Part shown: piece by piece, positions 1 through 44,512 of the stretch
Layout of the letters: each line of letters starts with the position of its first letter
Numbering within the stretch: position 1 is the first letter of the stretch
DNA from: Thereva unica
Lineage: Eukaryota > Arthropoda > Insecta > Diptera > Therevidae
Length of the DNA: 64,000 bases
Assembly: GCA_949987705.1 (NCBI GenBank)
Contig: OX465281.1
Coordinates: 139,858,876-139,922,875 of the forward strand
Direction of reading: 5' to 3'
Notes under the pieces: generated by a model
Database searches by the model: none
What the model was told of the DNA's origin: nothing
What the model saw: only the letters and a program-made list of their open reading frames with translations
Program-made: the position numbers and the translations under genes

Positions 1-290
1 GACGGAGAGCTACACGCCCCGGGGAGCGCCAATCCATCCTTAAGTATTAATTATAAATTAAAAAAACTTTAGGCGGTAGGGAGCTGCCTGCTTCACTCCT
101 CACCAACTAAAGTTTAATGAGTGAATGGGTCGCGCGCGAAGCCACCGCTCAATTTATAGTCGAGTTGCCGGAAAAAGCTCTTTTGTATGAAAATGTCTAA
201 AGGCGCGTGACGGAATGACAAAAATGCTCAGTCGTGCTGCGACCGCCGACGGGTGCAGACCTCTGGTACATTTTTAGATCGAGCCAGCGT
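1..290 (+). repeat. Viral hr-like repeat, copy A
   Basis: First of about nine near-full copies of a ~270-bp repeat in the viral half of the window. The core runs from an AT-rich stretch (around 50-70) through a short imperfect hairpin whose arms read AAACTTTAG and CTAAAGTTT about 32 bp apart, then a GC-rich CGCGCGAAGC block, to a GCGACCGCCGACG segment. Its spacing between viral genes and its internal inverted arms resemble the homologous regions of baculoviruses and nudiviruses, which act as enhancers and replication origins. That role is inference. The window starts inside or at the edge of this copy. Confidence 0.8.
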
Positions 291-428
291 CACATCTAGA
301 GCAAACTGTCGATGGGCCGAGTTGCATGTGTAGACCGCAAGCATGGTGATAATTGGCCGAGTTGCATGTTGCATGTGCATTTTATATGCCGCGAAAAAAA
401 TTTTTATTAATATCAAATACAAATACAT

Positions 429-1331
429 TTATTCATTAATCAGATTCATCACAATATCTACAATTGGCTCCTTTGTGATGATGGTATTATTCTTGGCGGC
501 ATATGAGTCGTTTGGCAGCAATTCCTTCACCCTATTTAATATGTTGATGGCGTTCGGCACGTTATCTTGGTCCACCACCAATTTTTCTCTTTCCTTATCG
601 ACCTGTTTCATCGCTCTTTTCAGATATCGGTTTTGTGTACGGATTTGTCGGTATTTCGATGCTTCCTCGTCGTGATATATCAAGAAGCGATGCCTCTTCT
701 CGCTGTTGTCGGGCATCACGGCCAGACGCGGGCGCTGTACCGTTATTGTTCGGACCAGGGCCAGCATCTGTTCATATTTTCGCACGAGCTGTCCGTCTTT
801 TTGTTTGATAATCGCCATTTGATCGGCTAGCTGTTCATCTTTTCGCATGAGCTGTGTGTCTTTTTGCGCGAGCTGCTCATCTTTTCGCACGAGCTGTTCG
901 TCTTTTTGGGCGAGCTGCTGTTTCAATGCCTCCAGCTGTGCCGGTTGTATGTCTGGAGAAATGTAGGCGCCCGTTTTGCGGATCTGCGGTAGTATATTCT
1001 TGCAGACGAACTTCATGTACCGCCTGGCTTCTGGCTTGTTGGAGCGGGACATCAACATCCAGATGCCCGGTTCCGAGACGAAAAGTGTGTCGGGTTGCCA
1101 ATTTTTTGGTGGTTTGGGGTGGGGGTCTGGTAGGGAGACCACCAGCTCACTCCATGTAATTTTATATTCCGGGTCTATTAATTGATATGCCATTTTCACA
1201 TTGGCATATCCCAAAAGGATGGCAAACTCTTTCAACTTGCAAAATATGTCATTATCGGGCGTCTGGATGGCCCAGCACTCGAATCCCTCGCCTTCTTTAC
1301 CCAATGCAAAAGTGTATCTTTCCAGCGACAT
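429..1331 (-). CDS. bro: BRO family protein with coiled-coil repeat and DUF3627-like tail
   Basis: A 300-residue baculovirus repeated-ORF (BRO) protein. Residues about 10-115 are a BRO-N domain (motifs such as KLKEFAILLGYANV and FVSEPGIWMLMSRS), a DNA-binding module common in large insect DNA viruses and phages. Residues about 130-190 are a heptad-like run of QLxxKDEQL units, predicted coiled coil. The C-terminal third (RPRLAVMPDN...YRQIRTQNRYLKRA) resembles DUF3627, the usual BRO tail. The frame is intact. A TATATA element lies 15-20 bases upstream of the start (1345-1352), which suggests early, host-polymerase transcription. It shares a nearly identical DNA stretch with the next BRO gene, suggesting gene conversion. 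Family call is firm; function of BROs is only broadly known (nucleic-acid binding, chromatin). Confidence 0.93.
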   Translation of the reverse strand: MSLERYTFALGKEGEGFECWAIQTPDNDIFCKLKEFAILLGYANVKMAYQLIDPEYKITWSELVVSLPDPHPKPPKNWQPDTLFVSEPGIWMLMSRSNKPEARRYMKFVCKNILPQIRKTGAYISPDIQPAQLEALKQQLAQKDEQLVRKDEQLAQKDTQLMRKDEQLADQMAIIKQKDGQLVRKYEQMLALVRTITVQRPRLAVMPDNSEKRHRFLIYHDEEASKYRQIRTQNRYLKRAMKQVDKEREKLVVDQDNVPNAINILNRVKELLPNDSYAAKNNTIITKEPIVDIVMNLINE

Positions 1332-1371
1332 GATTGCTTGCTACCTTATATATACAAAAAAAGACAAAAAT

Positions 1372-1803
1372 CTATTTCAATTTTTTTATTTGTTCTTCTA
1401 CAATTTGTATGGCCTCTTCGTCAGACTCGAAGCTATAAAACTCCTTCTCAATAAAACGGGTCTGTAGTATATTCTTGCAGACGAACTTCATGTACCGCCT
1501 GGCTTCTGGCTTGTTGGAGCGGGACATCAACATCCAGATGCCCGGTTCCGAGACGAAAAGTGTGTCGGGTTGCCAATTTCTTGGTGGTGTGAGAAGGTGG
1601 TATGGAAGGCAGACCACCACCTCACTCCATGTAATTTTATATTCCGGGTCTATTAATTGATATGCCATTTTCACATTGGCATATCTCAGTAGAGTAGCAA
1701 ACTCCTTCAATTTGTACCAAACTGTGGTATCGGGTGATATGTAGGCCCAGCACTTGAAAAAACACCCATCGTTTGTGGGGAACCGAAACTCTTCGAGCGA
1801 CAT
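1372..1803 (-). CDS. bro: Short BRO protein, BRO-N fused to a foreign tail
   Basis: A 143-residue BRO-N protein starting at the ATG of MSLEEF, the same start context (ATCAAGATGTCG on the coding strand) as the third BRO gene. Residues 1-105 are BRO-N. After KFVCKNIL the sequence jumps directly into a tail, FYSFESDEEAIQIVEEQIKKLK, that matches the very end of the T5orf172-bearing BRO at 1970-2677. The normal central domain is therefore missing: either an internal deletion or a recombination between two BRO paralogs. It may still make a DNA-binding protein without an effector domain. It sits head-to-tail between the two other BROs. Confidence 0.85.
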   Translation of the reverse strand: MSLEEFRFPTNDGCFFKCWAYISPDTTVWYKLKEFATLLRYANVKMAYQLIDPEYKITWSEVVVCLPYHLLTPPRNWQPDTLFVSEPGIWMLMSRSNKPEARRYMKFVCKNILQTRFIEKEFYSFESDEEAIQIVEEQIKKLK

Positions 1804-1969
1804 CTTGATTACAGCTGATTCAGATCGCTCGGCGGCAGACCATTTATATGACTCAGGTGCTCGGCCCGCTATTGGGGTCAATTTGCGGCGTCGGCAGATA
1901 GGCCCACCGAGCTCGAGCTCCTCGAGGCGACCGGCCCATCCCTAAACATTAAGTAAAAAGACAAAAAAT

Positions 1970-2677
1970 CTACTTGAGTTTCTTTATTTGCTCATCTACA
2001 AGTTGTATCGCCTTTTCGGTTGACTCGAACCGATAAAACCCACCCTCGGTGGAGTGACCATATAGGTTTGCAACGATAAACGATTCCGCCACGCGACAAT
2101 TGTCGACCTGCCACAACTGCAAAAAATAAAAGAGATCGCCGGCGGTCCTCGCGGCATTCATGTTGGCCAAACGTATCTTGGGGTTTTTGGTGGTGAAGCC
2201 GATCCTGTATGTTCCGTTTGCGCGGTGGCTTTCCGATGTCACGAGGTAAATCACGCCACGGCCCTCGCGCGCCTTGAGAAACTCTAGTTCTGCCGTGTCT
2301 CGGTTCGTCTCGTAGTACTCAGCAATGATTTGGCGCCGCAGATCGGGCAGCACCCTCCCACACACCCACTTGCTAAATATTTTGGTGGCCGGCTGGGTCG
2401 ACCTCATCATGAGCGCATAGATGCCTGCTTCCGATACAAACACCACTTCGGGATCCCAGTTGGACGGCGTGCTAATGTATTTGGTATTGGGTAAATTTTT
2501 CCACAATCTCTTGAACTCGGGGTCGATTAAGCGGTATGTCTCGCTCTCCTCCGCATAGTCGAGAAGATTGGCAAACTCTTTCAACTTGTACCAGACCGTG
2601 GTGTCGGGCGACGTGTAGGTCCAACACCTGAAAAACTGTCCGTCGTTTGTACAAAACTGAAACCTCTCGAGCGACAT
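1970..2677 (-). CDS. bro: BRO-N protein with C-terminal T5orf172 (GIY-YIG-like) domain
   Basis: A 235-residue protein with a BRO-N domain at about residues 5-110 and a T5orf172/MUG113-type domain at about 140-235 (GVIYLVTSES then YRIGFTTKNP, matching the GIY-YIG core layout). This two-domain arrangement is well known in poxviruses, baculoviruses and phages; the C-terminal fold is related to GIY-YIG nucleases. The start chosen is the MSLERF methionine, which matches its neighbour's start; a TATATAAATT element lies about 35 bases upstream. The frame is open throughout. Likely a DNA-binding protein with possible nuclease activity; activity is inferred only from the fold. Confidence 0.9.
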   Translation of the reverse strand: MSLERFQFCTNDGQFFRCWTYTSPDTTVWYKLKEFANLLDYAEESETYRLIDPEFKRLWKNLPNTKYISTPSNWDPEVVFVSEAGIYALMMRSTQPATKIFSKWVCGRVLPDLRRQIIAEYYETNRDTAELEFLKAREGRGVIYLVTSESHRANGTYRIGFTTKNPKIRLANMNAARTAGDLFYFLQLWQVDNCRVAESFIVANLYGHSTEGGFYRFESTEKAIQLVDEQIKKLK

Positions 2678-2797
2678 CTTGATTACGACTGAGTCTAGCC
2701 GACCGGCGGCAAGCAATTTATATACGGTAGCGCAGAAAAAAAATATTTATCGATCCATGATGTCTAGGTACCGCTTCCTGCGGCCACAGGAGCGGTC

Positions 2798-2845
2798 CCC
2801 AATGCCATGAATATCATAAATCGCGTAAAGGAATTACTGAACACT
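2798..2845 (+). pseudogene. Remnant of a BRO C-terminus
   Basis: A short plus-strand stretch reads PNAMNIINRVKELLN, nearly the same as residues PNAINILNRVKELLPN near the end of the BRO at 429-1331, but on the opposite strand and with no BRO-N domain upstream. The frame then runs into unrelated sequence. It looks like a fragment left by rearrangement of the BRO cluster. Confidence 0.5.
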
Positions 2846-3059
2846 ACATTTGGACGGGAATATTTTTTTCTACCCTTATATATATACTGTATCACAAGCA
2901 GAAGCGAGAGGCGGAGTCAGGTAGTTTTTGGCGCGCCACCCTTTAATACTAACAAGGTTAGACCCAAAGTGGTAACCAGGGCGATTCAAGCTAGTTTGTC
3001 GCGGCAGAGTCAGGGCGGGGGTCAAAAATTTCGTGCCGGTGGCACCACACAATTTCCAG

Positions 3060-3350
3060 CAGCTGCTCGTCATGAGGAGCTACACGCCCCGGGGAGCGCC
3101 AGCTCATCCTTAAGTATTAATTATAAATTAAAAAAACTTTAGGCGGTAAGGGAGCTGCCTGCTTCACTCCTCACCAACTAAAGTTTAATGAGTGAATGGG
3201 TCGCGCGCGAAGCCACCGCTCAATTTATAGTCGAGTTGCCGGAAAAAGCTCTTTTGTATGAAAATGTCTAAAGGCGCGTGACGGAATGACAAAAATGCTC
3301 AGTCGTGCAGCGACCGCCGACGAGTGCAGACCTCTAGACAATTTAATGGA
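3060..3350 (+). repeat. Viral hr-like repeat, copy B (left arm of inverted pair)
   Basis: Nearly identical to copy A, same orientation, including the CTACACGCCCCGGGGAGCG lead-in. Copy C follows in the opposite orientation after a short spacer, so B and C form a large near-palindrome. Confidence 0.85.
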
Positions 3351-3378
3351 GCTCCTCATGTTGAGCAGCTGACATACT

Positions 3379-3660
3379 TGGCTCGAGTCTCAAAAATGTA
3401 CCAGAGGTCTGCACTCGTCGGCGGTCGCAGCACGACTGAGCATTTTTGTCATTCCGTCACGCGCCTTTAGACATTTTCATACAAAAGAGCTTTTTCCGGC
3501 AACTCGACTATATATTGAGCGGTGGCTTCGCGCGCGACCCATTCACTCATTAAACTTTAGTTGGTGAGGAGTGAAGCAGGCAGCTCCCTACCGCCTAAAG
3601 TTTTCTTAATTAATAATTAATGCTCAAGAATGGCTGACGCTCCCCGGGGTGTGCAGCTCT
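3379..3660 (-). repeat. Viral hr-like repeat, copy C (right arm of inverted pair)
   Basis: Reverse-complement copy of the same repeat, sharing with copy A also the flank GTACCAGAGGTCTGC. With copy B it makes two ~270-bp arms separated by about 30-50 bases of non-matching spacer. Confidence 0.85.
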
Positions 3661-3934
3661 CGATGTCTCGAGCAGCGGATCGAAATCGTGAGGGGCTGTG
3701 CAGCTTTGTGGATCGAGTTCGCGGATGAAAATTGTGCGGTGCGCTTTTATGACCTTGAAACCACTGCCCGCCTTGATCTAGCCCACTGGCGACTTGACAG
3801 CAGTGTCTATACTGCAACTCGTCTCTGCTAGTCCGGCCAGCACCTTGTCTCTGCCGTTACAAACTGGTTTTATCCGCTCCAAACACCACCATAATACAAT
3901 TGACCGCACCTCGCATAGTCCCCCAGTCCCCAAG
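3661..3934 (-). repeat. IAP leader sequence that recurs inverted at 44.1-44.5 kb
   Basis: The 270 bases in front of the first IAP gene, read on the minus strand, recur almost unchanged at about 44150-44465, and in part at 32815-32942 (GGTGTTTGGAGCGGATAAAA and GGCAGAGACAAGGTG blocks). This stretch therefore belongs to a longer mobile or amplified repeat unit attached to the hr-like core, not only to the IAP gene. Confidence 0.75.
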
Positions 3935-4393
3935 ATGACTTTACCGACGGTGTATCGCCCGATGGAGTCGCTGCACGAGCGAATCTCGAGTTTCGTATTC
4001 TGGCCGGCGCACCTGGCGCAGACCCCTACCCAGCTCGCGCGGACGGGACTCTACCACACGGGGTTTCGCGACTGCTGCCGCTGCTTTGTCTGCGACTCGG
4101 AGTGTCGCGACTGGCGGCCCACCGACATTCCGGCCGTGCGTCACCTCCTGACGAGCCCCCGGTGCCTGATTGTTTGCGGAAAGAACCAGATCAAGATGCT
4201 CTTCGACAACCCAGAGCCCGCCCCAACTCCACCGCCTGGTAACAAGATTGCCTGTGCCGTGTGCTGTATCGAGCGCAGCCTCACGGTGCTCCTGCCGTGC
4301 GGCCATAGCGCAGTATGCATGATGTGTGTCTGTAGGTTAAGAAGTTGTCCAATTTGTAAAACCGGTATTCTAGATGTAGCTTGGTTCGAATAG
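3935..4393 (+). CDS. iap: Inhibitor-of-apoptosis protein, one BIR plus RING
   Basis: 152 residues from the ATG at 3935 (upstream codons are open but have no ATG). A BIR domain spans about residues 15-80 with zinc ligands C50, C53, H70 and C77 (CX2CX16HX6C) and the GLYHTGFRD core. A RING finger spans C107-C141 (CAVC...PCGHSAVC...CPIC). BIR-RING proteins bind and ubiquitinate caspases or their activators and block host cell death. It is shorter than the two-BIR viral IAPs of baculoviruses. It is followed 48 bases later by a second IAP gene in the same direction. No TAAG motif is near its start, which fits an early gene. Confidence 0.93.
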   Translation: MTLPTVYRPMESLHERISSFVFWPAHLAQTPTQLARTGLYHTGFRDCCRCFVCDSECRDWRPTDIPAVRHLLTSPRCLIVCGKNQIKMLFDNPEPAPTPPPGNKIACAVCCIERSLTVLLPCGHSAVCMMCVCRLRSCPICKTGILDVAWFE

Positions 4394-4441
4394 GTTTGAA
4401 TAAATCGATTTGACCAGAGTAAGTATGTTTTATTTATACAG

Positions 4442-4927
4442 ATGGGCGACCACGTGATCACGACAGTCATCCGCTCCGACGGCGGCCGGGTTAGTGTGTA
4501 CGGACGCACCCCCCGCACCCCGATGACCAAGATGCAGAGGCTCAGCACGTTTGCGCGGTTCCCGACTGCCGGCAACCCGAGGATCAACCCCGTGCAGCTG
4601 GCCGAGCTCGGATTTTTCTACACCACCCTCGGAGACCAGATTGCCTGCCACCTGTGCGGAGTGATGGTGGGCTGCTCCAACACCGATATCGACTACCGCT
4701 GCCTGCACGCCCGCCTATCTCCGCTGTGCGAGGCGGCTGCCGCGCCGCAGAGAAGGCCTCATAGGCTCGTCCGAGAGTGTGTTGGCTGCGGGGATCCGGG
4801 TGTCGGAATACTACTGCCTTGCACCCACGCGCTGCTCTGCCATAGCTGCTTCGCCGAGCGAGGAGGAATGTGTGCACTCTGCCGGAAGAGGCAGACAGAG
4901 TGGCGGCGCATCTTTTTTAGCATATAA
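4442..4927 (+). CDS. iap: Second IAP, BIR plus RING
   Basis: 161 residues. The BIR core covers about residues 33-97 with ligands C69, C72, H89 and C96; the region between the ligands is diverged (MVGCSNTDIDYR replaces the usual GLxxW helix). A RING spans C113-C147. It has an extra basic N-terminus of about 30 residues. The gene sits 48 bases after the first IAP. TAAG at 4420-4423, 19 bases before the ATG, suggests late expression, unlike its neighbour. The divergent BIR means caspase or IAP-antagonist binding cannot be assumed. Confidence 0.88.
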   Translation: MGDHVITTVIRSDGGRVSVYGRTPRTPMTKMQRLSTFARFPTAGNPRINPVQLAELGFFYTTLGDQIACHLCGVMVGCSNTDIDYRCLHARLSPLCEAAAAPQRRPHRLVRECVGCGDPGVGILLPCTHALLCHSCFAERGGMCALCRKRQTEWRRIFFSI

Positions 4928-4981
4928 ATAAAGCTTTTTCTCGAAAGTAGTCAGTCTTGTTTTAATCCCCGTAGAGTCGAA

Positions 4982-5707
4982 ATGGCAGCACAGTTTGATC
5001 CATCTGTAGAGCCTTTGTTGCGGGAGAACCCGCGCCGGTTTGTCATCTTTCCGATACAGTTTCCCGAGATTTGGAAGTTTTACAAGAATGCCGAGGCGTC
5101 GTTTTGGACGGTGGAGGAGGTCGATCTCTCTAAAGACCAGGCCGACTGGGAGCGCCTCACCGACGGCGAGCGCCACTTTATATCTCATGTGTTGGCCTTT
5201 TTCGCCTCCTCGGACGGGATCGTCAACGAGAATCTAGTGGAGCGGTTCAGCCAGGAGGTGCAGGCCACCGAGGCGCGCTGCTTTTACGGCTTTCAGATTG
5301 CCATGGAGAACATACACTCGGAGATGTACAGCGTGTTGATTGATACCTACATCAAGGACCCGACCCAGCGCGACAGCCTATTCAACGCCATCGCGACGCT
5401 GCCCTGTGTGCGGAAAAAGGCCGAGTGGGCGCTGGCGTGGATCGGCGATAAGGATTCCACATTTGCGGAGCGACTGGTGGCCTTTGCGGCGGTCGAGGGC
5501 ATCTTTTTCAGCGGCAGCTTTGCCGCCATCTTTTGGCTCAAGAAGCGCGGCCTGATGCCCGGCCTCACCTTCTCCAACGAGCTCATATCGCGCGACGAGG
5601 GCCTGCACTGCGACTTTGCCTGTCTATTGTTCCGGCACATGGTGCAGCAACCCAGCAAGGAGCGTATCGTGCAAATTGTGAGGCAGGCCGTCGAGATTGA
5701 GCAAGAG
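4982..5707 (+). pseudogene. rnr2: Ribonucleotide reductase small subunit, 5' part (interrupted)
   Basis: The first 242 codons of a class I ribonucleotide reductase R2 subunit. All metal ligands expected for the di-iron site can be placed by family spacing: D78, E109, H112, E172, E206 and H209, and the radical tyrosine is Y116 in the [12 protein letters not shown] motif. R2 pairs with the large subunit R1 to make deoxynucleotides for viral DNA synthesis. The frame stops only because a BEL/Pao retrotransposon begins at 5708; the rest of the gene resumes at 15603 in the same reading frame once the element and one copy of the target duplication are discounted. No R1 gene is in this window. The ATG at 4982 follows a short leader without TAAG. 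Confidence 0.96.
5703..5707. repeat. Target-site duplication AAGAG, left copy
   Basis: AAGAG immediately before the left LTR (TGTTTTGG...). The same five bases follow the right LTR at 15598-15602. Five-base duplications are typical for LTR-retrotransposon integrases. Confidence 0.93.
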
Positions 5708-7489
5708 TGTTTTGGCCTAAAAGGACAAAACAATTAAAAATAAAATTAAAATACAGAAATTACCTTTTTCCATATCCTATTCGCAATAAAAACAAACTGG
5801 ATGTGTCAAAATAATGACATGCGTGTAAGTATTAAAATATGGAAAGCGTCAAAGCGTCAATATCGTAATTTAGTACATACGATATATATATATGGAAAGC
5901 GAAAACGTAGGAAAGCAGCATTAAGAATTACGCTCTAGTTTTGAGCAATTTTACCCCCACCTAGCCTCGATATCCAGCAACAAGAATTTGGCGAAGGATA
6001 CGAGGCTCGGAGGCAGATATCAAAAATTTAATCTTCTCTGGACATTCGCCGAGAAGGTTGGTATCTGGAATTATTCCGATACGCTTATATCAGGGCTTAG
6101 ATAATTGGTGGGCTTTTAGCCGCTGATTTTTGTGATAGGATTATTTAGAGAAAGTGTTGTTTTTCAGGCAGCTTTTTTACAAAAAATATTTGAGTAATAT
6201 TTATCTTTAAATATATATATATATTATTATTTATATATACGTATATTTAAACGTAACAAATATAATTTTTGTTTCTGGTGGCGGTTTTTAGCTTCCAACT
6301 CCAAGCTGAATAGCGGTAGGCTAATTCAGCCACGGCACTTTTAAAAAATAAAAGATAAAGCAGAGTTACTTGCGGTAACTCGTGAAAATTCTTTGCAAGC
6401 AATTTAAGTCCTCTGGTTGGAATTATTCCGCCAGGTATTGGAGTTATTAAATTCGATTTAATAACAATTCCAGTCTCTAGCAACTTTGTTGTATACAAGT
6501 TGCGTAGAGTGCACCAGAATATTCATCTGGATATAAATTGGTATAAACAATGCAGCGCAGTAAATTTACTTCATTTTCTAGCACATTTGTAATATATAAG
6601 TTGCATAGAGGGCATCAGAATATGTTTTCTGATTTATAAATTGTTGTAAACAATTCGGCGAAGTAAATTTACGTTAATTTCTAGCAACTTTGTAAGATAC
6701 AAGTTGCATAGAGTGCAGCAGAATATTTTTTGCTTATAAATTGTTATAACCAAGTCGGCGAAGTAAATTTACTCCATTTTCTAGCAACTTTGTAATATAC
6801 AAGTTGCATAGAGGGCATCAGAATATTTTTTCTGATTTATAAATTGTTGTAAACAATTCGGCGAAGTAAATTTACTCCATTTATCACAACTTTGTTGTAT
6901 ATAAATTGTGTAGAGAGCACCAGTATATTCTTCTGGTTATAAATTGATAACACCATTAGTGAGTTCATTACAGACAAGTTTGAACCAGGATCTTCCTCCG
7001 GTTTACACCTGTTTTAGGCGATTTCACGTGAGCTTGTATAGGACAAGAGCCATACAAGACTCATTTAGCAAAGTGAAATTTTTATGGTTTGGGATATCCA
7101 ACCATATTTAAATAATAATAAAATTTACAATTTTATTTAAAGTTTAGTGGGAATTCTTCTCCTGAAGCACCCCCCCCGAGGTTGGATACACAGCGGATTT
7201 ACCTGATTGAGGCAGTACTTCAAGGAATATTTGGAGAAGACCAGCTGTATTTTTATTCAAATTTTTATTTTAAAGCAAAGAAGTCGAGTAACGTAGAGTT
7301 AATTTTAAGCATAGATTTAATTAGAATTTATAATTTATAGGAGAAATATATTTGTATCAAACGGACCTTAGACTCTTTTATTTAGAGCAGCCGGCACCTA
7401 TCCTACATTTCAGCTATTTTTTAATTATTACGACGATCACCTCCTAACACCAGGTCTTTAACCGGTTTTAGGAAAGTGACGCCGTAACA
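5708..7489 (+). repeat. BEL/Pao 5' LTR
   Basis: 1782-bp long terminal repeat beginning TGTTTTGG and ending CCGTAACA. It carries internal tandem-like repeats (6480-6960) built on TAGCAACTTTGT...AAGTTGCATAGAG and GGCGAAGTAAATTTAC units. Compared with the 3' LTR I see one 2-bp length difference in a TA run (about 5881-5892) and one substitution (6552). Confidence 0.95.
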
Positions 7490-7507
7490 TTGGTCCTTCG
7501 AGCCGGA
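7490..7507 (+). other. Primer-binding site of the BEL/Pao element
   Basis: TTGGTCCTTCGAGCCGGA starts right after the LTR end. Its complement ends in CCA preceded by a T-arm-like CTCGAAGGA, as expected for the 3' end of a primer tRNA. I cannot name the tRNA. Confidence 0.7.
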
Positions 7508-7601
7508 TAGGTAGCAGTGATACAAATATATTTCTTGTTTTCTTCTCGAGTAGTCATTACGCGATCCAAATATTCCTTCTTATAATTAACCCAGGGTTTC
7601 C

Positions 7602-36380: not shown

Positions 36381-36385
36381 GGCGG

Positions 36386-36991
36386 TTACGCGGGGCGTAT
36401 GTGTATGCATTTCTTAAAGTTGATATTAGAGTTGAATCGCAGTATGATCTTGTATATTAGAAACATGACGACCAGCAGCACCATTGCGATGGCGTAGTAA
36501 ATCTCGTTGCCCGATAGCATGGAGGTAATCAAGAGTGTGAAGAATGCCCCTATGACAAGTGTCTCGAGGCACTGGCCAATGATAAACTGGCAGTTGTTGG
36601 TCAAAATGTTGAATTTCGAGTCGTGCACAAAATTGCTGTGCATAAAGTGATACAGGCAATAATGGCACATCTCCTTGATGCCAATCATGCGCCCGCCGTC
36701 GACATCGTCCTTTTTAAAAATATTTTTATCATCTGTGAACCCGGGGTGCCACACTTTTCCATCGACCATGAGGTAGTAGTGGTTAGGGAACCCAATCAAC
36801 GAAATGATAGGGTAGTATTTGTAGATAACAAAGCTCGAGCCAATCGGGGCGCCGGGGGAGGCATTCTTCTCGCGAAACTGGTACATGTTTAGGCGGGAGT
36901 TGAGCGAGCTTATCGGCGGCTCGTCGTCTTTGGCATAGGCCCAGTCAGAAAGAGCTTCATTTATTGTTTCTCTGGAATATTTATTAATCAT
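36386..36991 (-). CDS. Membrane-anchored LRAT/NlpC-P60-like protein
   Basis: 201 residues. HYYLMVDGKVWHPG (H71) followed about 60 residues later by NILTNNCQFIIGQ (C134) gives the His then Asn-Cys order of the circularly permuted papain-like LRAT/NlpC-P60 group, whose members include thiol acyltransferases and phospholipases at viral membranes. Residues about 145-183 are one or two membrane helices and the tail is short and basic. TAAG lies one base before the ATG on the coding strand (complement of 36993-36996). Likely a virion or membrane enzyme; activity is inferred from the two motifs only. Confidence 0.62.
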   Translation of the reverse strand: MINKYSRETINEALSDWAYAKDDEPPISSLNSRLNMYQFREKNASPGAPIGSSFVIYKYYPIISLIGFPNHYYLMVDGKVWHPGFTDDKNIFKKDDVDGGRMIGIKEMCHYCLYHFMHSNFVHDSKFNILTNNCQFIIGQCLETLVIGAFFTLLITSMLSGNEIYYAIAMVLLVVMFLIYKIILRFNSNINFKKCIHIRPA

Positions 36992-37002
36992 TCTTAATTC
37001 TA

Positions 37003-37656
37003 CTACAAATTTCGCCGCCTATAGAAATGATTACAAAATTGAAAAGTCAGTTTACTCATGTCGAATCGCCGCACATCTAGTTTAAGTCGGTTGAGGGCCT
37101 CGTTGTCCGATTTGTGGGTTGCCGTGTACTGTTCATACGCCATGGTCACCATTGTGTGGTAGGGACCGTGCTCGAGCAATTTTCGTATGGTGCCTACGCC
37201 CTCGCTAATCTCGTTGATAAAATCGGCCCGCTCAAAGTAGACAATCATCGCGAGCATGGCATCGTCGGTGTAGTAGTTGGTCGCGCCCGGGGGTGAAAAC
37301 GCATACGCCAGGGCGGCAAAGATGCACTTGTACGAGAGCTGGAAGGTGGTGTCGCCATCGTCAATCAGGTAGTACGTGCACCTGTCGCACAGGTAGTTCT
37401 TTGTGCAGGCAAACATGCTGAGAGTGCTGCATCCGCATCCGTCCTCGTCTGATGAATAAAACGGCTGACATCGCTTGCAGACATATTTTTTACAGTCGGC
37501 GCACCGGACCCCGCCTCCCGGACTCGATGGCACTCCGCAAAAGCCGCACGTATATGGGCTCGTGCGCTTGTAGTCAATGTAGTAATATTTGAACGAGAGC
37601 CTCAGCAACTTGTGTAGATTGTGCCAGGGGTCGCTTGTTAGTTTTAATACCTCCAT
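37003..37656 (-). CDS. Cys-rich zinc-binding protein, unknown family
   Basis: 217 residues. Residues about 37-105 contain a dense double treble-like cysteine array (CGFC, CADCKKYVCKRC, CGCSTL, CTKNYLCDRC) that could bind two or three zinc ions, in the manner of FYVE, RING or PHD-like fingers, but the spacing fits none exactly. The C-terminal half is helical without motifs. It is 11 bases downstream of the LRAT-like gene's start, on the same strand. A ubiquitin or lipid-binding role cannot be distinguished from the sequence. Confidence 0.7.
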   Translation of the reverse strand: MEVLKLTSDPWHNLHKLLRLSFKYYYIDYKRTSPYTCGFCGVPSSPGGGVRCADCKKYVCKRCQPFYSSDEDGCGCSTLSMFACTKNYLCDRCTYYLIDDGDTTFQLSYKCIFAALAYAFSPPGATNYYTDDAMLAMIVYFERADFINEISEGVGTIRKLLEHGPYHTMVTMAYEQYTATHKSDNEALNRLKLDVRRFDMSKLTFQFCNHFYRRRNL

Positions 37657-37686
37657 CTGAAAGAGTGCGGTGAACGAGACTGGTGT

Positions 37687-37947
37687 TTAGAACTGCATTG
37701 CACCCCTTTTATAGAGAACCGACTCCAGTCGCAGCGACACCGTACACCAGCAGCACCTAACGATCCGATAGAGTGACCCGGGGTCATCGGCGGCGAGCGA
37801 CAGCTTTGTCTCGAAATACGGCATCTCACCCGGGCTAGTTAACGCGACCCAGTACGCGCACGATAGGAAATTTTCGTCGCGCCTGGCGCACATGAATGCA
37901 TCGCGATCCATGAACGTTGTCACGATAAAGTCGTGCCACTGCCGCAT
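37687..37947 (-). CDS. Small unknown protein
   Basis: 86 residues, start ATG 37947, in the same direction and 30 bases upstream of the Cys-rich protein gene. Contains a CCWC cluster near the C-terminus (about 69-72) but no recognised domain. The frame is open and the codon use resembles the neighbours. It might be an independent late protein; low confidence in function. Confidence 0.5.
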   Translation of the reverse strand: MRQWHDFIVTTFMDRDAFMCARRDENFLSCAYWVALTSPGEMPYFETKLSLAADDPGSLYRIVRCCWCTVSLRLESVLYKRGAMQF

Positions 37948-38038
37948 CTTGAAATCGGACTGGCCCCCAACTATTCGTCGCGACTATAAAATAGCTAGAA
38001 CAAAGTGTGAGATTTAGTTTTTATCAGAAAGCCGCGCC

Positions 38039-38623
38039 ATGAAGACAAAAAGAGCGAGTAAACTGAGAGTCGTATATACGCGTAAGCAGAAACCGCCACC
38101 ACCGACGCCCCCGCGCCTAGTGCCAGTCGATAATCTCTTGCTCTGCTCCACATACAGTCTGGACGAGCACCAGCGGACACGCGTAATGGTGGGGTTCCAC
38201 CCAAAGAGCTTTGCAGCTACAACAATCATTCACCGATTCGGGAACCTCCCCGCACTACTGGGTTTCGACGAGTGGATCACCTTGAAGAAAAGCATTTCCG
38301 TGATGCAGGAAACGAGCGAAATCAGGTGCAACCGGCCAGCCGACTACCAGTACACCGTCAACAACATGCAATTCTCGCAGCCCGAGATGATACAATTCAT
38401 CCAGTATATTCCGCTGGTGGAGCGGTTCATGCAAATCAACAACGTGCTTGCGACGGGTATTCGCAAATACTACGAAAACTACATCAGGATGTGCCGCACA
38501 AAAAATACCAGCAGATTAGATCTCAACGACTTTTTTGTACCCAACCATGACTTTTCAGTGTACGTTAATTATGTTATACTTTTTTATGAAATTCCACTAC
38601 TTTGTAGTGTCAATTTATTGTAA
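38039..38623 (+). CDS. Unknown protein with basic N-terminus
   Basis: 194 residues. The first 30 are very basic and proline-rich (KTKRASKLRVVYTRKQK), which could be a nuclear or nucleic-acid-binding tail. The rest is an ordered domain (VGFHPKSFAATTIIHRFGNL, FIQYIPLVERFMQI) without known motifs. TATAAAA lies at about 37985, suggesting early transcription. Its last 9 bases overlap the end of the opposite-strand gene. Confidence 0.65.
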   Translation: MKTKRASKLRVVYTRKQKPPPPTPPRLVPVDNLLLCSTYSLDEHQRTRVMVGFHPKSFAATTIIHRFGNLPALLGFDEWITLKKSISVMQETSEIRCNRPADYQYTVNNMQFSQPEMIQFIQYIPLVERFMQINNVLATGIRKYYENYIRMCRTKNTSRLDLNDFFVPNHDFSVYVNYVILFYEIPLLCSVNLL

Positions 38624-39136
38624 TAAATACAGATACAAGATACGGTGTGAGTTTTTCATTTGTTCCTTGCGAACTAGCTTCAATCCATCCACCAAAGAGT
38701 CACTCGACGGCCGAAGAGGATCCTCCATCGGCGGATGTCGCTGCCGCCTCATAAATATGGAATCTGGTCTCTCCACACTCAGCGAGATGTAAGTAAATTT
38801 CTTGATGGCAAATATGCGCGCGTGCATGTAATTTTCCTCGGTGGTGATACAGTTGAGGATGGTCCGTATGGTGAATTCGCCCATATTGGGCTGCTCCATG
38901 ACGGCGAAAAACAGCGAGCTCTCTATATCGATGTTGAGAGAGTCGATAAACCTGACGAGATCGGCCCGGGCGGTGTGTTTTTTGTCATTGAAGAGTGTCT
39001 GCATGCACAAGTCGCGCAGTGAGGCTGGTCCGTTCAAGAGTTTGTACCTCCGAGGGTCCGCGAGGCGGCGCCCGTAGTAAGATTGCCGTTTTTCGCACAA
39101 GTGGTGGTACTGGGGGTGGCCGGTGAGTAGTGCCAT
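38615..39136 (-). CDS. Unknown protein, convergent with neighbour
   Basis: 173 residues. A segment PASLRDLCMQTLF (about 37-49) is weakly like a SOCS-box BC box, but nothing else supports that. The C-terminus is basic. The start codon (39134-39136) is only 6 bases from the divergent ATG at 39143, so its promoter must lie inside the neighbouring gene. Confidence 0.65.
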   Translation of the reverse strand: MALLTGHPQYHHLCEKRQSYYGRRLADPRRYKLLNGPASLRDLCMQTLFNDKKHTARADLVRFIDSLNIDIESSLFFAVMEQPNMGEFTIRTILNCITTEENYMHARIFAIKKFTYISLSVERPDSIFMRRQRHPPMEDPLRPSSDSLVDGLKLVRKEQMKNSHRILYLYLLQ

Positions 39137-39142
39137 TATAAG

Positions 39143-40537
39143 ATGGAGTATGCAAACAATCGAGGGTCTTTATTTAACCGCACGTACGGATACAATTTAT
39201 CCTTTTTCAAACCACTACAGATTTGGGAATGGCGCGCCGACAATGATCGTGCCTTTATAAACGACAAATATGTCGACGGGTCGGGGCCATCCCCTCCAAT
39301 AACCTGGCTTCGAGATGTTCGGAGCATCGAGCAGCTCTTCCAGTTCTGCCAAAAGACGGGCAGCGACGCCGTCTTCTCGAGCACGCCGCTCGCCCCAATG
39401 CCGGCCTCGGCCATACAGGGCCGCACCAATCTGAGTCTGCGCGTATTGATTGTCAACGGCATGGTCGACCTAGCTACCGTGTCGCGATTGTTTCCCGAGT
39501 TGCGGCACATTTACTGCTCCTCGCTGATTATCAGCGACAGCGCCGAGTGCCCCCAACTGCGCACCCTATCGACATTCGGCGGGTCGGTGGTCGAAATCAA
39601 CGAGAGCTTGATTGCCCCCCACCTAACCGCCCTAGACCTCATAAAGAGCTCGGGTGATCTCAATATCGGCAAGTTTCCGTTCCTCAACACACTGCGAATC
39701 GGGGCCTCGGTGCGGGTGGTATCGATCGAAGCGCCATGGCCCAAGCTCAAGGTTCTGCATGTGCTCACACTCGACGATGACATGAAGACCACAACAAACA
39801 TGGCCGAGTTGGTGAGGGTGCACTCTCCCGAGGACATGATTGTGCCACTCAACGCGCTGGGCAGCCAAGAAATCACCAGATTCTACGAGTCGCTTAACAA
39901 CCTCAAGACCATAGGCGTCTATTGCCTCGACGAGCGTCTAGAGGAATACATACGGTATTTTGGCAACAAGCTACAAATCTACGATTCCGCCAACAAATAT
40001 ATATCGATGTGCGTTAGGCATAACAAGAGCATGCGCAACTACTTGAACCGCTGCTACGGCAACGTGCTGACAAGTACGGCATGCCAACAAATGGACGGGA
40101 CCGAAGAGCCGCTCATCGTTCTGACCAACTACAATTTCACGAGAAAGAATTCCGATAAGGTGTCCGCCTACAATGAGCGCTGGATCAATGTGGTCAATGT
40201 GGTGCGCAATATCTATGAGAACGATCCCGTGATCATTGTACGGGACGAGATCATACAGAATGACGAGTTTGCGTTCCCGGACCCAGTCGTCAACAACAAG
40301 CGCCGCCAGATCATTGTCGATCTCAAGCGAAAGACGCTCACATTCTTCACATCGTGCGGCATCATAACGCAACTGGCGACACTAGTGCGCGACTTTTTAG
40401 CGACCTTTGACGCCATAGAGCTGCTGCGCGTCAACCTGTACGGATCATGTGTCTCCGCCGAAAATATCGTGAATGCGATAAGACGCACCACCCCCCTCAA
40501 GAATATCGTTATAAACCACGAGAAATATCTGGTGTAG
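39143..40537 (+). CDS. Leucine-rich-repeat-like viral protein
   Basis: 464 residues. Residues about 90-260 show irregular leucine-rich repeats (LRVLIVNGMVDLATVSRLFPELRHIY, CPQLRTLSTF, FPFLNTLRIGASV, LKVLHVLTLDDD). The C-terminal 200 residues are ordered but unrecognised. TAAG at 39139-39142 abuts the ATG. It may be a protein-interaction factor; LRR proteins of unknown role are found in several large insect viruses. No signal peptide. Confidence 0.65.
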   Translation: MEYANNRGSLFNRTYGYNLSFFKPLQIWEWRADNDRAFINDKYVDGSGPSPPITWLRDVRSIEQLFQFCQKTGSDAVFSSTPLAPMPASAIQGRTNLSLRVLIVNGMVDLATVSRLFPELRHIYCSSLIISDSAECPQLRTLSTFGGSVVEINESLIAPHLTALDLIKSSGDLNIGKFPFLNTLRIGASVRVVSIEAPWPKLKVLHVLTLDDDMKTTTNMAELVRVHSPEDMIVPLNALGSQEITRFYESLNNLKTIGVYCLDERLEEYIRYFGNKLQIYDSANKYISMCVRHNKSMRNYLNRCYGNVLTSTACQQMDGTEEPLIVLTNYNFTRKNSDKVSAYNERWINVVNVVRNIYENDPVIIVRDEIIQNDEFAFPDPVVNNKRRQIIVDLKRKTLTFFTSCGIITQLATLVRDFLATFDAIELLRVNLYGSCVSAENIVNAIRRTTPLKNIVINHEKYLV

Positions 40538-40592
40538 AGCAGTATCTCCCCAGACGTCGGACAGCGCGGATCGATAGGTTATATATAAGAGG

Positions 40593-41327
40593 ATGGAGTT
40601 TACATATGTAACCATAACAATCATAATTGTTGCAGTTATCGCTGTCGGCGCCCTCACATGGTACATCTACAAAAAGACAAACGTATCCAAGAGCATAAAC
40701 AAGCTGCCGCATAAATCGACCATCGCCGAGTATGACGAATTTGTCGCGCACAACGAGCTCGTTGAGTCGTTTCTGCCGTGCCAGCGCTCGCTTCTGAATG
40801 CAAAATATTTTTTTTCCTTTGTCTCGGATCCTGGTTGCATCTTGAACAGTGAGCATGCCCCGCTGTACCACTGCAAGAATATGCACGAGGCCTACTTCAC
40901 GTGCATCACGTACTGCAGCACCGTCGAATGCAGGCAGCGCCACGTGTGCAACATATTCCCGATCCTGATTGGGTCCGAGCTCGATCACGCCGTGTTCCAG
41001 AAGCTCTATCCGGAGAGGTACCGCCGCGACTTGTCCTGCTTCGACAACCTGTTTGGCATGATCTTTGTCGATGGGACGCTCTGCTACTTCCCCAACATCT
41101 TCACCAACCGCAAGCAGATGGGTCACATGGTCAAGCGCAGCAACGACATCTTTTGCATATATCTGTACGACAGCCAGGAATCTGGGCACCGGCTGACTGT
41201 GGTGCAATCTGGCGAGATGGTGTACCGTAGCAACCTGGGCAAGAACTACACGCTCGCCCCGGGCACATTCGACATACCGATCGAGTTTCCAGTAGATGGC
41301 GCCCACCTCGATATGAGCCAATTATAA
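40593..41327 (+). CDS. N-anchored Cys-rich protein, PIF-like
   Basis: 244 residues. Residues 4-26 are an N-terminal membrane anchor (YVTITIIIVAVIAVGALTWYIY), the rest an extracellular-type domain with about ten cysteines (CQRS, GCIL, HCKN, TCITYC, ECRQRHVC, SCFD, LCYF, FCIY). An N-terminal anchor plus Cys-rich ectodomain is the plan of several per os infectivity factors of baculoviruses and nudiviruses, but I cannot match it to a numbered PIF. TAAG lies 3-7 bases before the ATG (40586-40589). The lef-8-like frame follows in the same frame with only the TAA stop and a few codons between. Confidence 0.72.
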   Translation: MEFTYVTITIIIVAVIAVGALTWYIYKKTNVSKSINKLPHKSTIAEYDEFVAHNELVESFLPCQRSLLNAKYFFSFVSDPGCILNSEHAPLYHCKNMHEAYFTCITYCSTVECRQRHVCNIFPILIGSELDHAVFQKLYPERYRRDLSCFDNLFGMIFVDGTLCYFPNIFTNRKQMGHMVKRSNDIFCIYLYDSQESGHRLTVVQSGEMVYRSNLGKNYTLAPGTFDIPIEFPVDGAHLDMSQL

Positions 41328-41372
41328 GACGTGGTGTCAAAGATATACAGGCACACTGTGCCCATCGACAGC

Positions 41373-43277
41373 ATGGAGAACAAGCTCATCTTTTCGATGA
41401 TGCACATACTGATGGAGGTCTGCCAGATGGCCCGCTATGATTGGAAGCTGATCCGCCGCTACATGTTGAGGGGCGAGCTCGAAAAGTTTCTGTCGACGCG
41501 CATCGAGTTTGCCTCGGTCAACGACACGAAGAAGAACTCTTCGGCCAATGGACTTTGCGGCATATCGGGGTTCCACTACCGCAAGATTGCGCCGAACCAG
41601 ATCCCCACTACCCGCGAGGCGGCCGCGGCCCGGTACGACAGATATGTGGTGCGCCCCACCGGCCGCAGCGTGCTGAAATCTAGTGTTCCGGAGCGCACAG
41701 AGTTCTTTTTGTGCCCGATCGAGCGCAGTATGAATATAAATCAGCCCAACAGGTGGCTCACGCTGCTGGACACTGTCGAGATCTCGACAAAGGCGACGCT
41801 GGCACGCGGTGACTCGATAAATGATGTGATTGAATTCATGTGCAACTCGGGGCTTATTGTCGCCTATGAGCGGGGCGCAAACGTGAAAAAACACGTGCTG
41901 ATAAATGGCTGCATATGCACAAAATACCAATTAGCAGTGGATAGAATCGACATGACCACCCTGCGCGCCTTGAAGCAATTAAATTCTCATTACGAGTACT
42001 ACGAAACGAGTGACTTTCTAATGATCAACATTTATCCGGGTGTACCATTCATTAGAGTCGGTGACTGTGCGATTTCACCACTCGAGCTGCACAATACGCT
42101 GCGCGCCGACGACATACCTGTGACCCTGAAGGTTTTCGGGCCCAACATTTCGGAGCAGACGGTTGCCGACGCCCAATATGCAGTAAGTAGCAAGCTATTG
42201 ATTGCGACCAACCATATGAAAAACCGATATTCCACGAGCAAGACCCTAAAGTACTTTGGCTATACCAACGAAAACACCAATGTCGCCATTAAAAATCTGA
42301 ACCCAAACGACACGCTAATGAGCGTCGACCTTCGTTTTAGCAGTCATCCGCAGATTATCGGTGACAGCTACATCATTAACCGAGACCTAAAGGTGCCGTG
42401 CGTAATTATGCACAAGACGCGCTTCGAGTTCGATTTCGACCGGAGCACTAATATCGTGTTCGAGGACAACCTTACCGCCGCCAACTGCATGTTGACGAGA
42501 AACTCGATGGGCATGCCGATACGCAAGGAGCTAAAGGTCATGTGGATTGAAAAATTTGGTGCACCACTCAGCATCAAGATATTTCCGCAAATCAAAATGT
42601 ACGCGGTGGAATCTGAGAATGCCGCTGGCCGCATATACAACATATACAAGTATTTCGATGAGATGCATCACCTGGAGAGCGAAAATTTCGATATCTGTGT
42701 GACTGGCATTGTGCGGGCGACCATTGGAAAGACTCTCCGCATGTATGTCGATGTTGTCACGAGCATCGAGTGCTCCAACTACGATGGCATGAAGTTTTGC
42801 GACGATTGCAGCCAGAAGGGCATCGTGCTGCCGCAGGACTGCTCCCGCTACGACAGCAAGACGGAGGTGGTGGCATCGATATTCTCGATACCTGCCCGCC
42901 AGCCCGTGGGCCAGATGAAGCGACTGCGGCGCAACAACCCCACTAGCGAGATACTCCGCGGACAATACCAGATGGGGGTCCTCAAGAATAATGCATCTTC
43001 GTTTAAGAACATTGCCTCCACGAAATTCGACAACTACCAGGTGCACATCTTGTCAACAAACAACGTCAACCACGGGGTGTACGACTACTATCAGGCAACT
43101 CTACCCCGGGAGGAGCGCGGTCGCATCCTTCCGATGGAGAATAGCAATGCCCTCGGCACAATAAATGCTGTGCGAGTGAACGTAGCTGTGCGGTACGGTG
43201 GCAAGGAAACTAAGCTCGATAATTTAATGGACCACGACGAGTACAGACAGGTCGCCGATAGGATAAACAATCGCTAG
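41373..43277 (+). CDS. lef-8: LEF-8-like RNA polymerase subunit, apparently lacking its N-terminal part
   Basis: 634 residues from ATG 41373 (the frame is open from 41328). It is the beta-like subunit of the viral late polymerase: FFLCPIERSMNINQPN (about 115) matches the beta-subunit CPI(E/D)TPEG region, DDCSQKGIV (about 478-486) with IPARQPVGQMKRL (about 505-517) matches the QKG...SR.T.GQ core, and RYGGKETKLDNL lies near the end. In LEF-8 proteins of about 850-900 residues the CPI region lies several hundred residues in, so roughly 250 N-terminal residues (protrusion and lobe) seem to be missing. The anchored Cys-rich gene occupies that place. TAAG overlaps its stop (41325-41328). Either truncated or unusually short. 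Confidence 0.8.
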   Translation: MENKLIFSMMHILMEVCQMARYDWKLIRRYMLRGELEKFLSTRIEFASVNDTKKNSSANGLCGISGFHYRKIAPNQIPTTREAAAARYDRYVVRPTGRSVLKSSVPERTEFFLCPIERSMNINQPNRWLTLLDTVEISTKATLARGDSINDVIEFMCNSGLIVAYERGANVKKHVLINGCICTKYQLAVDRIDMTTLRALKQLNSHYEYYETSDFLMINIYPGVPFIRVGDCAISPLELHNTLRADDIPVTLKVFGPNISEQTVADAQYAVSSKLLIATNHMKNRYSTSKTLKYFGYTNENTNVAIKNLNPNDTLMSVDLRFSSHPQIIGDSYIINRDLKVPCVIMHKTRFEFDFDRSTNIVFEDNLTAANCMLTRNSMGMPIRKELKVMWIEKFGAPLSIKIFPQIKMYAVESENAAGRIYNIYKYFDEMHHLESENFDICVTGIVRATIGKTLRMYVDVVTSIECSNYDGMKFCDDCSQKGIVLPQDCSRYDSKTEVVASIFSIPARQPVGQMKRLRRNNPTSEILRGQYQMGVLKNNASSFKNIASTKFDNYQVHILSTNNVNHGVYDYYQATLPREERGRILPMENSNALGTINAVRVNVAVRYGGKETKLDNLMDHDEYRQVADRINNR

Positions 43278-43467
43278 TACTCGCTAGTATTTTATTTTTA
43301 AAATGCCGCGGATAAATTCGTGCATGATGGTATTGGAAGCGTCCTGTGGTGCGTGCGGAACTCGCAGAAAGTGGTATACTTCGTGAAGGATAACTCTCTG
43401 CAGTTGCTGTGATGTAGTCCTTATTTGCATATTGATATGTTCTTGTAGTAAATAAATAATTTGGAAA
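43278..43467. other. Intergenic
   Basis: No supportable gene. GC content falls and this is the last stretch before boundary repeats. Confidence 0.5.
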
Positions 43468-43620
43468 TGGAAATTCTAGCTTTTAACTTACAACTCTCCG
43501 ATAACCTCGATTTTTAAATATGTTATTTTTGGGGTCATCCTGAGCACATTTATATATATATGGGCGCGCTCTCGCATCCTTTATATTTTTTTTGGTTTCA
43601 AAGATTATCCTTTCCCCTGT
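43468..43620 (+). repeat. MITE-like repeat, left copy of inverted pair
   Basis: Begins AAATTCTAGCTTTTAACTTACAACTCTCC and runs through TTATTTTTGGGGTCAT and GGGCGCGCTCTCGC. A copy in the opposite orientation lies at 44690-44872, diverged by roughly 15 percent. A further partial copy of ACAACTCTCCGATGGCCTTGATTTT is at 43643. Confidence 0.75.
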
Positions 43621-43854
43621 CTGACTGTGTAGCTTTTAGGGTACAACTCTCCGATGGCCTTGATTTTGGGATATGTTGTAGGGAGGAACATGCTGATGAC
43701 AAATATATAAAAATGACAGCGACGGGAGGAAATAAGTAGCAAGAGATAGTTATGGTACCAACTGCAATCACTCGTATTAAACTCTGAGAGGGCGCTATCT
43801 GGGGTCAAAGGTCGCAAAAGTGCACCTCACGATTTCGATCCGCGAACTCGATCC

Positions 43855-44106
43855 ACAAAGCTGCACGGCCCGAGGAGCGTCAGCCATTCTTAAGCATTAA
43901 TTATTAATTAAGAAAACTTTAGGCGGTAGGGAGCTGCCTGCTTCACTCCTCACCAACTAAAGTTTAATGAGTGAATGGGTCGCGCGCGAAGCCACCGCTC
44001 AATATATAGTCGAGTTGCCGGAAAAAGCTCTTTTGTATGAAAATGTCTAAAGGCGCGTGACGGAATGACAAAAATGCTCAGTCGTGCTGCGACCGCCGAC
44101 GAGTGC
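43855..44106 (+). repeat. Viral hr-like repeat, copy I
   Basis: The last full copy of the ~270-bp repeat, forward orientation, and the last clear viral-type sequence. It is followed by the ATCGCTGGTATAAATTTGAG block and the IAP-leader-like block (44107-44246). Confidence 0.85.
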
Positions 44107-44246
44107 ACATCGCTGGTATAAATTTGAGGCTCGAACAAATAGGGGATTACTGCGTGGTGCGGTCAATTGTATTAAGGTGGTGTTTGGAGCGGATAAAACC
44201 AGTTTGTAACGGCAGAGACAAGGTGGTGGCCGGACTAGCAGAGACG

Positions 44247-44369
44247 AGTTGCAGTATAGACACTGCTGTCAAGTCGCCAGTGGGCCGAGTTGCAGTATAG
44301 ACACTGCTGTCAAGTCGCCAGTGGGCCGAGTTGCAGTATAGACACTGCTGTCAAGTCGCCAGTGGGCTA
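44247..44369 (+). repeat. 41-bp tandem repeat, three copies
   Basis: Three near-perfect units starting GAGTTGCAGTATAGACACTG at 44247, 44288 and 44329. A single unit occurs inverted at about 3780-3820 upstream of the first IAP gene. Confidence 0.9.
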
Positions 44370-44445
44370 GATCATGGCGGACAGTGGTTTCAAGGTCATA
44401 AAAGTGCACCGGACAATTTTCATCCGCGAACTCGATCCACATAGC

Positions 44446-44512
44446 TGCACGGCCCGAGGAGCGCCCGCTCAATATATAGTCGAGTTGCCGGAAAAGCTCT
44501 TTTGTATGGGAA
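44446..44512 (+). repeat. Partial hr-like repeat, copy J
   Basis: GCTGCACGGCCCGAGGAGCG is joined directly to CGCTCAATATATAGTCGAG and the GCCGGAAAAGCTCTTTTGTA block; the AT-rich and hairpin parts are deleted. Confidence 0.75.

What the first reader, a model, noticed from the sequence alone, without database searches (positions are those of the whole stretch)
1..44512. Large endogenous naldavirus-like block beside a host gene
About 28 compact intronless genes with LEF-8-like, LEF-9-like, ODV-E66, BRO, IAP, RNR2 and serpin proteins lie in one stretch, next to AT-rich DNA with a spliced DMAP1 gene. Host-type elements (BEL/Pao, a MITE) have inserted into the viral part and several viral genes are broken. 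This fits an integrated virus of the baculo/nudi/filamento/hytrosa group that is decaying. The family is unclear and may be undescribed.
Basis: partly seen in the sequence, partly recalled or inferred. Interest (0 to 1): 0.92.

Follow-up and report, generated by a model that had tools for sequence, protein, structure and literature searches.

The report
Insect virus riding inside giant transposon
The viral genes in this stretch are one end of a roughly 199,000-base unit in which a baculovirus-like virus genome lies between the inverted ends of a cut-and-paste DNA transposon, and several nearly identical copies sit at different places in the host genome, so it looks like a virus that spreads as a transposon rather than a dead fossil.

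Summary
The viral block beside DMAP1 is real, but it is not simply a decaying fossil. It is the right 44.9 kb of a 198.9-kb unit (C1:139704825-139903731) in a 910-Mb assembly. The unit has inverted terminal repeats (147 bp, 96.6% alike; left one measured on the C870 copy) and a perfect 8-bp target duplication (CAATTTTG). A DDE transposase domain of the IS1595/Merlin class (PF12762, 5.7e-18, C870 copy) lies just inside the left end; the window's own unit carries the same stretch at 99.4% identity. Family searches place a type-B DNA polymerase, PIF-1, p74 and Ac81 in the unit; ODV-E66 lies in the window. Near-identical units sit elsewhere on C1, C4, C313/C870 and C883 with different flanks; 4 of 5 units with both ends on one contig have perfect 8-bp duplications (a 20.6-kb one on C5 does not). 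Seven copies differ by 3-13 of about 3,045 bases. The 'MITE' at the junction is the unit's own end. BEL/Pao came later: the C313 copy has the empty site. LEF-9 is supported by motifs only and is frame-broken; LEF-8 is not confirmed. Nearest kinds: Teratorn and sesarmid-crab nimaviruses. Host unnamed; present mobility and infectivity not shown.

The parts
1..44856 (+). right-hand part of the 198,907-bp unit C1:139704825-139903731 (window start = C1:139858876)
44710..44856 (+). right terminal inverted repeat, outer end GAATTTCC; matches the left repeat of the C870 copy over 147 bp at 96.6%
44857..44864 (+). 8-bp target duplication CAATTTTG; second copy directly outside the left end of the same unit
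43469..43609 (-). internal inverted copy of the terminal repeat sequence, present in the other copies too
43801..44508 (+). hr-like repeat cluster; further clusters at 5-286, 3042-3697, 16537-16878, 23002-23987, 31863-33390
429..1331 (-). BRO gene (Bro-N 8.3e-16, DUF3627)
1372..1803 (-). short BRO frame, 143 aa (Bro-N 7.4e-15)
1970..2677 (-). BRO gene (Bro-N 6.3e-19)
3935..4393 (+). IAP-like, BIR and RING
4442..4927 (+). IAP-like, BIR and RING
4982..5707 (+). RNR small subunit, first part (frame ends in the LTR); second part starts at 15598
5708..15597 (+). later BEL/Pao retrotransposon, LTRs 5708-7489 and 13818-15597 (1779/1782 identical), AAGAG duplication; absent from the C313 copy
19036..20744 (+). 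LEF-9-like region: two overlapping frames, broken; DFDGD at 19875-19889, SGARGS at 20391-20408
20963..21355 (-). BIR protein (5.4e-16)
21815..22957 (+). serpin (8.1e-40)
24218..25003 (+). ankyrin-RING protein
25069..25896 (+). ankyrin-RING protein
27876..29921 (-). ODV-E66, 681 aa; N, H and Y aligned with the solved ODV-E66 chain 3vsm
36386..36991 (-). Ac81 (9.1e-29); 8 matches in the genome
41373..43277 (+). 634-aa frame without known relatives; LEF-8 not confirmed
47521..48384 (-). host side: three stretches of DMAP1 (PF05499)

Best explanation
The block is the right part of a giant composite DNA transposon: a naldavirus genome enclosed by inverted repeats of a Merlin-type element, with a Merlin-class (IS1595) transposase domain next to the left end. 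Shown: precise ends, 8-bp duplications, the transposase domain, viral core genes and near-identical dispersed copies. Inferred: a transposase, from the unit itself or from related elements, moved the unit by its inverted repeats and duplicated 8 bp at each new site; viral replication genes may have raised the copy number between jumps. Copies then began to decay by retrotransposon insertion, deletion between hr repeats and broken frames.
For: Right ends of 7 units (window, C1:76.5M, C1:156.3M, C1:157.7M, C4, C313, C5) stop at the same terminal sequence with different flanks. All 8 left-type ends read begin GGTAATTCTATC, unlike the right ends (GGAAATTCTAGC), so the copies share one founder with two distinct ends. 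8-bp duplications are identical in 4 of 5 units with both ends on one contig. PF12762 transposase domain at 5.7e-18, bit score 65.8 against a cut-off of 27, and the same stretch in the window's unit at 99.4% identity with both frames open. Ac81, PIF-1, p74 and DNA polymerase B fall inside the unit's span. Copies differ by 3-13 of about 3,045 bases.
Against: The C5 unit (20.6 kb) has no matching duplication, and no left end was found for the C1:156.3M copy. The transposase is in two frames of 150 and 183 aa in the same register with a stop between them (or an intron) in both copies read, so it may not be working, and the ends also occur on small elements, so it could act in trans. The genome-wide search for this transposase did not complete (14 tries). 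The C4 unit of 366 kb must hold large inserts not looked at. No movement, expression or reads were seen. That Merlin makes 8-9 bp duplications and that PF12762 covers it is recalled.
Confidence: 0.87

Rival explanations
1. One old endogenous virus fossil, later copied by segmental duplication.
For: Several copies lie on one chromosome and are nearly identical.
Against: Flanks beyond the common end are unrelated apart from short dispersed repeats, and the 8-bp duplications differ from unit to unit but agree within each of 4 units.
Confidence: 0.03
2. Repeated germline integration of a free, circulating virus whose own genome ends in these repeats (virus first, transposase only as its integrase), rather than jumping of a chromosomal unit.
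For: Two sequence patches shared in conflicting ways suggest recombination among replicating copies; endogenous nimaviruses are described as moving by acquired integrases.
Against: None decisive; small elements with the same ends exist in the host genome, which favours a resident transposon family but fits both.
Confidence: 0.3
3. Assembly join of a free virus with host contigs.
For: No reads could be inspected here.
Against: Seven right and eight left ends at the same terminal sequences, with matching duplications up to 366 kb apart; a retrotransposon with its own target duplication inside the viral part.
Confidence: 0.01
4. The viral genome is a passive passenger mobilised in trans by a separate Merlin transposase elsewhere in the genome.
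For: The transposase frames in the two units read are split; small elements share the ends.
Against: A transposase domain lies inside the unit in both copies read.
Confidence: 0.35

Closest known systems
Teratorn (herpesvirus-piggyBac fusion, medaka; PMC5601938, search listing only)
   Same: about 180-kb mobile unit that is largely a DNA virus fused with a cut-and-paste transposon (listing)
   Different: herpesvirus and piggyBac there; naldavirus and a Merlin-class transposase with 8-bp duplications here
Endogenous nimaviruses of sesarmid crabs (PMC10871703, passages)
   Same: Naldaviricetes members bounded by inverted repeats (46 bp) with a transposase, called giant transposable elements by the authors
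   Different: Nimaviridae, Ginger2-like transposase, AT/TA microsatellite targets; here Ac81/ODV-E66-bearing virus, PF12762 transposase, 147-bp repeats
Labial gland disease viruses CjLGDV/AgLGDV and their ant elements (PMC12548425, parts 1-5 of 8 read), with AmFV
   Same: GC 52% in CjLGDV, ac81, odv-e66, bro, iap, virus-specific repeats; many near-identical paralogues in Harpegnathos; AmFV GC 50.8% (listing)
   Different: the passages read describe no inverted ends, target duplications or transposase; RNR, serpin and ankyrin are not mentioned in that paper; no sequence comparison was possible
Hytrosaviridae (Musca, Glossina, Drosophila suzukii associated)
   Same: nearest named ODV-E66 proteins: 30% Musca, 35% Glossina (353-aa record), 33% D. 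suzukii
   Different: one gene only; labial gland disease viruses did not appear in the answers, so the ranking is incomplete

Membership tests
Naldaviricetes | pif genes | tested here: met
   PIF-1 (8 matches) and p74 (6 matches), each with one match inside the window's unit; 0 of 14 control genomes in both. PIF-2 search unanswered; others not tried
Naldaviricetes | type-B DNA polymerase | tested here: met
   23 matches in the genome, one inside the window's unit; the family also rings in 5 of 14 control genomes and in probable host polymerases
Lefavirales | lef-4, lef-8, lef-9 | tested here: inconclusive
   lef-9-like by two motifs only; lef-8 not confirmed and its genome search unanswered; lef-4 not tried as a family search
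Lefavirales | ac81 | tested here: met
   PF05820 9.1e-29; 8 copies
LGDV/AmFV lineage | core-gene tree placement | not testable with these tools
   no LGDV or AmFV protein sequences were obtained; GC 0.514 is compatible
Hytrosaviridae | core-gene tree placement | tested here: inconclusive
   only ODV-E66: nearest named hits are hytrosaviral at 30-35%; the tree has mostly unnamed rows and leaves the window unresolved in a 12-row set that does not hold the D. suzukii hytrosavirus row
Merlin transposons | IS1595-class DDE transposase | tested here: met
   PF12762 5.7e-18; same stretch in the window's unit. Link of the family to Merlin is recalled
Merlin transposons | inverted repeats and 8-9 bp duplications (recalled) | tested here: met
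   147-bp repeats; perfect 8 bp in 4 of 5 units with both ends on one contig, not in the C5 unit
Teratorn (as a piggyBac element) | TTAA duplications (recalled) | tested here: not met
   8-bp duplications, none of them TTAA; it works like Teratorn but is not a member
sesarmid endogenous nimaviruses | Ginger2-like transposase | tested here: not met
   the transposase found is PF12762; the rest of the unit was not read, and nimavirus genes were not searched

The most novel reading that the evidence does not exclude
A Merlin DNA transposon and an Ac81/ODV-E66-bearing naldavirus have fused into a self-mobilising virus-transposon that entered its presumed insect host recently, multiplied to several near-full copies, recombined among copies, and may still alternate between chromosomal and viral life.
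Probability: 0.3. Interest if true: 0.97.

Novelty: new variant of a known kind. Interest (0 to 1): 0.92.

Why it matters
Whole large DNA viruses fused with transposons are described for fish herpesviruses (piggyBac) and crab nimaviruses (Ginger2). A third pairing, between the Merlin class and a baculovirus-like virus, would suggest that nuclear large DNA viruses repeatedly become heritable by acquiring a transposase. It also gives a testable explanation for the multi-copy AmFV/LGDV-like elements reported in the ant Harpegnathos saltator: look at their ends for inverted repeats and target duplications.

Tried and rejected
Rejected: (1) a single old fossil; (2) a chimeric join; (3) 'a MITE inserted at the junction', since the other copies end there too; (4) host = ant, which I assumed after reading PMC12548425: nothing here shows it, and a 910-Mb assembly is larger than ant genomes that I recall; (5) LEF-8, not confirmed.

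Led nowhere: homologue search with Ac81 (77 candidates, none at E 0.001) and with the 634-aa frame; viral-contig scans (no relatives); tblastn in phages; single-sequence fold (pLDDT 29, not searched further). The ODV-E66 tree used the window plus 24 of the 32 hits, nearly all unnamed; P0014, P0018-P0021, P0023, P0024 and P0031 were left out. Searches were aimed at the RNR site of the C1:156M copy and showed instead that it lacks the stretch between two hr clusters; (C313) gave the empty BEL/Pao site. The telomere pattern search did not complete, so the host order stays open.
Full report
WHAT IS IN THE WINDOW. The left 44.9 kb has compact open frames, most of the long ones with high third-position GC, and GC 0.514 without the retrotransposon; 44,860-64,000 has 0.381. 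Pfam gives three BRO-N, two BIR-RING, RNR small subunit and BEL/Pao, a third BIR, serpin, two ankyrin-RING and a PL8 lyase domain, and Ac81 at 9.1e-29. The lyase is ODV-E66: 32 homologues, 31-44% identical; it matches the solved ODV-E66 chain 3vsm at 8.9e-15 alone and 2e-39 as a profile, with aligned N, H and Y; its model (pLDDT 89) matches Musca hytrovirus ODV-E66 best. A LEF-9-like gene rests on DFDGD and SGARGS in one frame, overlapped by an upstream frame in another register, so it looks broken. LEF-8 could not be confirmed. DMAP1 stretches lie at 47.5-48.4 kb; the rest of the host side holds copia-type and non-LTR elements.

THE WINDOW'S PLACE. The window is C1:139858876-139922875 of a 910,112,553-base, 930-contig genome, and Ac81 occurs 8 times in it, 8 of 8 without stops, 0 of 14 control genomes. 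The stretches round Ac81 are 97.1-99.7% identical to the window.

PRECISE RIGHT END. In C1:76.5M, C1:156.3M, C1:157.7M and C4 the similarity to the window stops at window 44857-44862; the flanks beyond share only short dispersed repeats. C313 and C5 end in the same sequence. A 1,561-base query from this end had 276 matches, not all listed; among those listed, hr-like repeats of the window's locus reach 110 kb left of the window.

LEFT END, REPEATS AND TARGET DUPLICATIONS. A search with 109 bases of the terminus (80 matches) found inverted partners: for the window at C1:139704825, giving a unit of 198,907 bp; for C1:157.6M about 150.6 kb, C1:76.4M about 183.7 kb, C4 about 366 kb, C5 about 20.6 kb. 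No left end was found for C1:156.3M. All 8 left-type ends read begin GGTAATTCTATC; right ends begin GGAAATTCTAGC. The repeats match over 147 bp at 96.6% (left one from C870, right one from the window). The 8 bases outside are identical at both ends in the window (CAATTTTG), C1:157.6M (CCAAAATG), C1:76.4M (CTGAATTC) and C4 (GAATTTGT): 4 of 5 units with both ends on one contig; C5 does not match. C870 and C313 hold one end each with the same AAATATTA, so they are probably halves of one copy (inference). An 8-base match by chance is about 1 in 65,000 per unit if bases were equally frequent; these flanks are AT-rich, so somewhat more.

TRANSPOSASE. Inside the left end of the C870 copy are two minus-strand frames of 183 and 150 aa in the same register with a stop (or an intron) between. 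The first is PF12762, ISXO2-like DDE transposase, 5.7e-18; the second has a zinc knuckle match. The window's own unit has the same stretch at 99.4% identity, both frames open (C1:139705625-139706659, minus). That PF12762 covers the Merlin superfamily and that Merlin makes 8-9 bp duplications is recalled. The genome-wide search for this family did not complete.

VIRAL CORE. PIF-1: 8 matches, none with stops inside. p74: 6 matches; open frame 548 aa in the window's unit, 589 in C1:157.7M, 673 in C870 (partial match) and 694 in three. DNA polymerase B: 23 matches; 7 lie in the window's, other C1, C4:57.8M, C870 and C883 units; similar ones in C42, C4:40-42M (one with a TAG) and C3:112-114M suggest further units, and the remainder look like host polymerases (this sorting is mine). 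Pieces of other copies hold a matrixin protease, a BRO and a BIR gene (3 of 10 frames scanned had a match above cut-off).

AGE AND DECAY. Over about 3,045 bases of the Ac81 region seven copies differ by 3-13 substitutions and the C2 copy by 35-40; over 931 bases near the right end by 0-8. With 3-7e-9 substitutions per site per generation (recalled) this means roughly 10^5 to 10^6 generations, a rough inference. Extra differences between two groups cluster in the first 430 bases of the fetched stretch, and the end region shares blocks in conflicting ways, so copies have probably recombined. The BEL/Pao (LTRs 1779/1782 identical, AAGAG duplication) is absent from the C313 copy, where window 5037-5708 is followed directly by 15598-16332: copies without the insertion exist. 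The C1:156M copy lacks the stretch between two hr clusters; C313 has a 7.5-kb insert near the right end, and the C2 copy is broken up.

THE REPEATS. Nine larger hr-like copies in six intergenic clusters, both orientations, 91-99.6% identical; BLAST found none in 44.6-64 kb. Labial gland disease viruses also have virus-specific repeats with palindromes. A roughly 440-bp element at C4:62907821-62908258 has the same inverted ends with flanks that differ at one of 8 bases, so small relatives exist.

KNOWN AND NEW. CjLGDV/AgLGDV and related elements in ant genomes were published in 2025 (PMC12548425; outline, parts 1-5 of 8 and passages); Harpegnathos has many near-identical paralogues (PMC10259472 passages). 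Ant elements like AmFV were reported in 2019 (PMC6540820, passages). AmFV has RNR and BRO genes (PMC4517127, passages). Nimaviruses of sesarmid crabs have 46-bp inverted repeats and a Ginger2-like transposase (PMC10871703, passages). Teratorn joins a herpesvirus to piggyBac (PMC5601938, listing). I saw no report of a Merlin-bounded naldavirus in searches; none of them used the word Merlin, and the library holds open-licence papers only. Hence: a new variant of a known kind, the virus-transposon fusion.

LIMITS. No reads, expression or movement were seen. Gene content left of the window is known from four family searches and scattered pieces. The family is open: ODV-E66 points to hytrosaviruses among named proteins, GC and gene set are also compatible with LGDV/AmFV, whose sequences I did not have.

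Noticed in passing
window 51236-61322: Host side packed with mobile elements: a CCHC ORF1-like frame, copia gag and RVT_2, two RVT_1 frames, apparently nested.
   Followed up: no
window 47521-48384: Only three DMAP1 stretches were seen; the N-terminal half was not found with a few typed motifs, so the gene may run on beyond the window or be incomplete.
   Followed up: partly
G000:C4:62907821-62908258 and ends on C2, C3 and C4: Many further copies of the terminal repeat, some on elements of about 440 bp; a family of small relatives of the giant unit.
   Followed up: partly
G000:C3:112-114M, C4:40-42M, C42: More viral-like DNA polymerase matches, one with a stop, near other terminal repeats on C3 and C4; possibly older units.
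   Followed up: no
window 26131-26502 and L065:3658-5999: Frames made of short tandem repeats inside the viral unit, function unknown.
   Followed up: no
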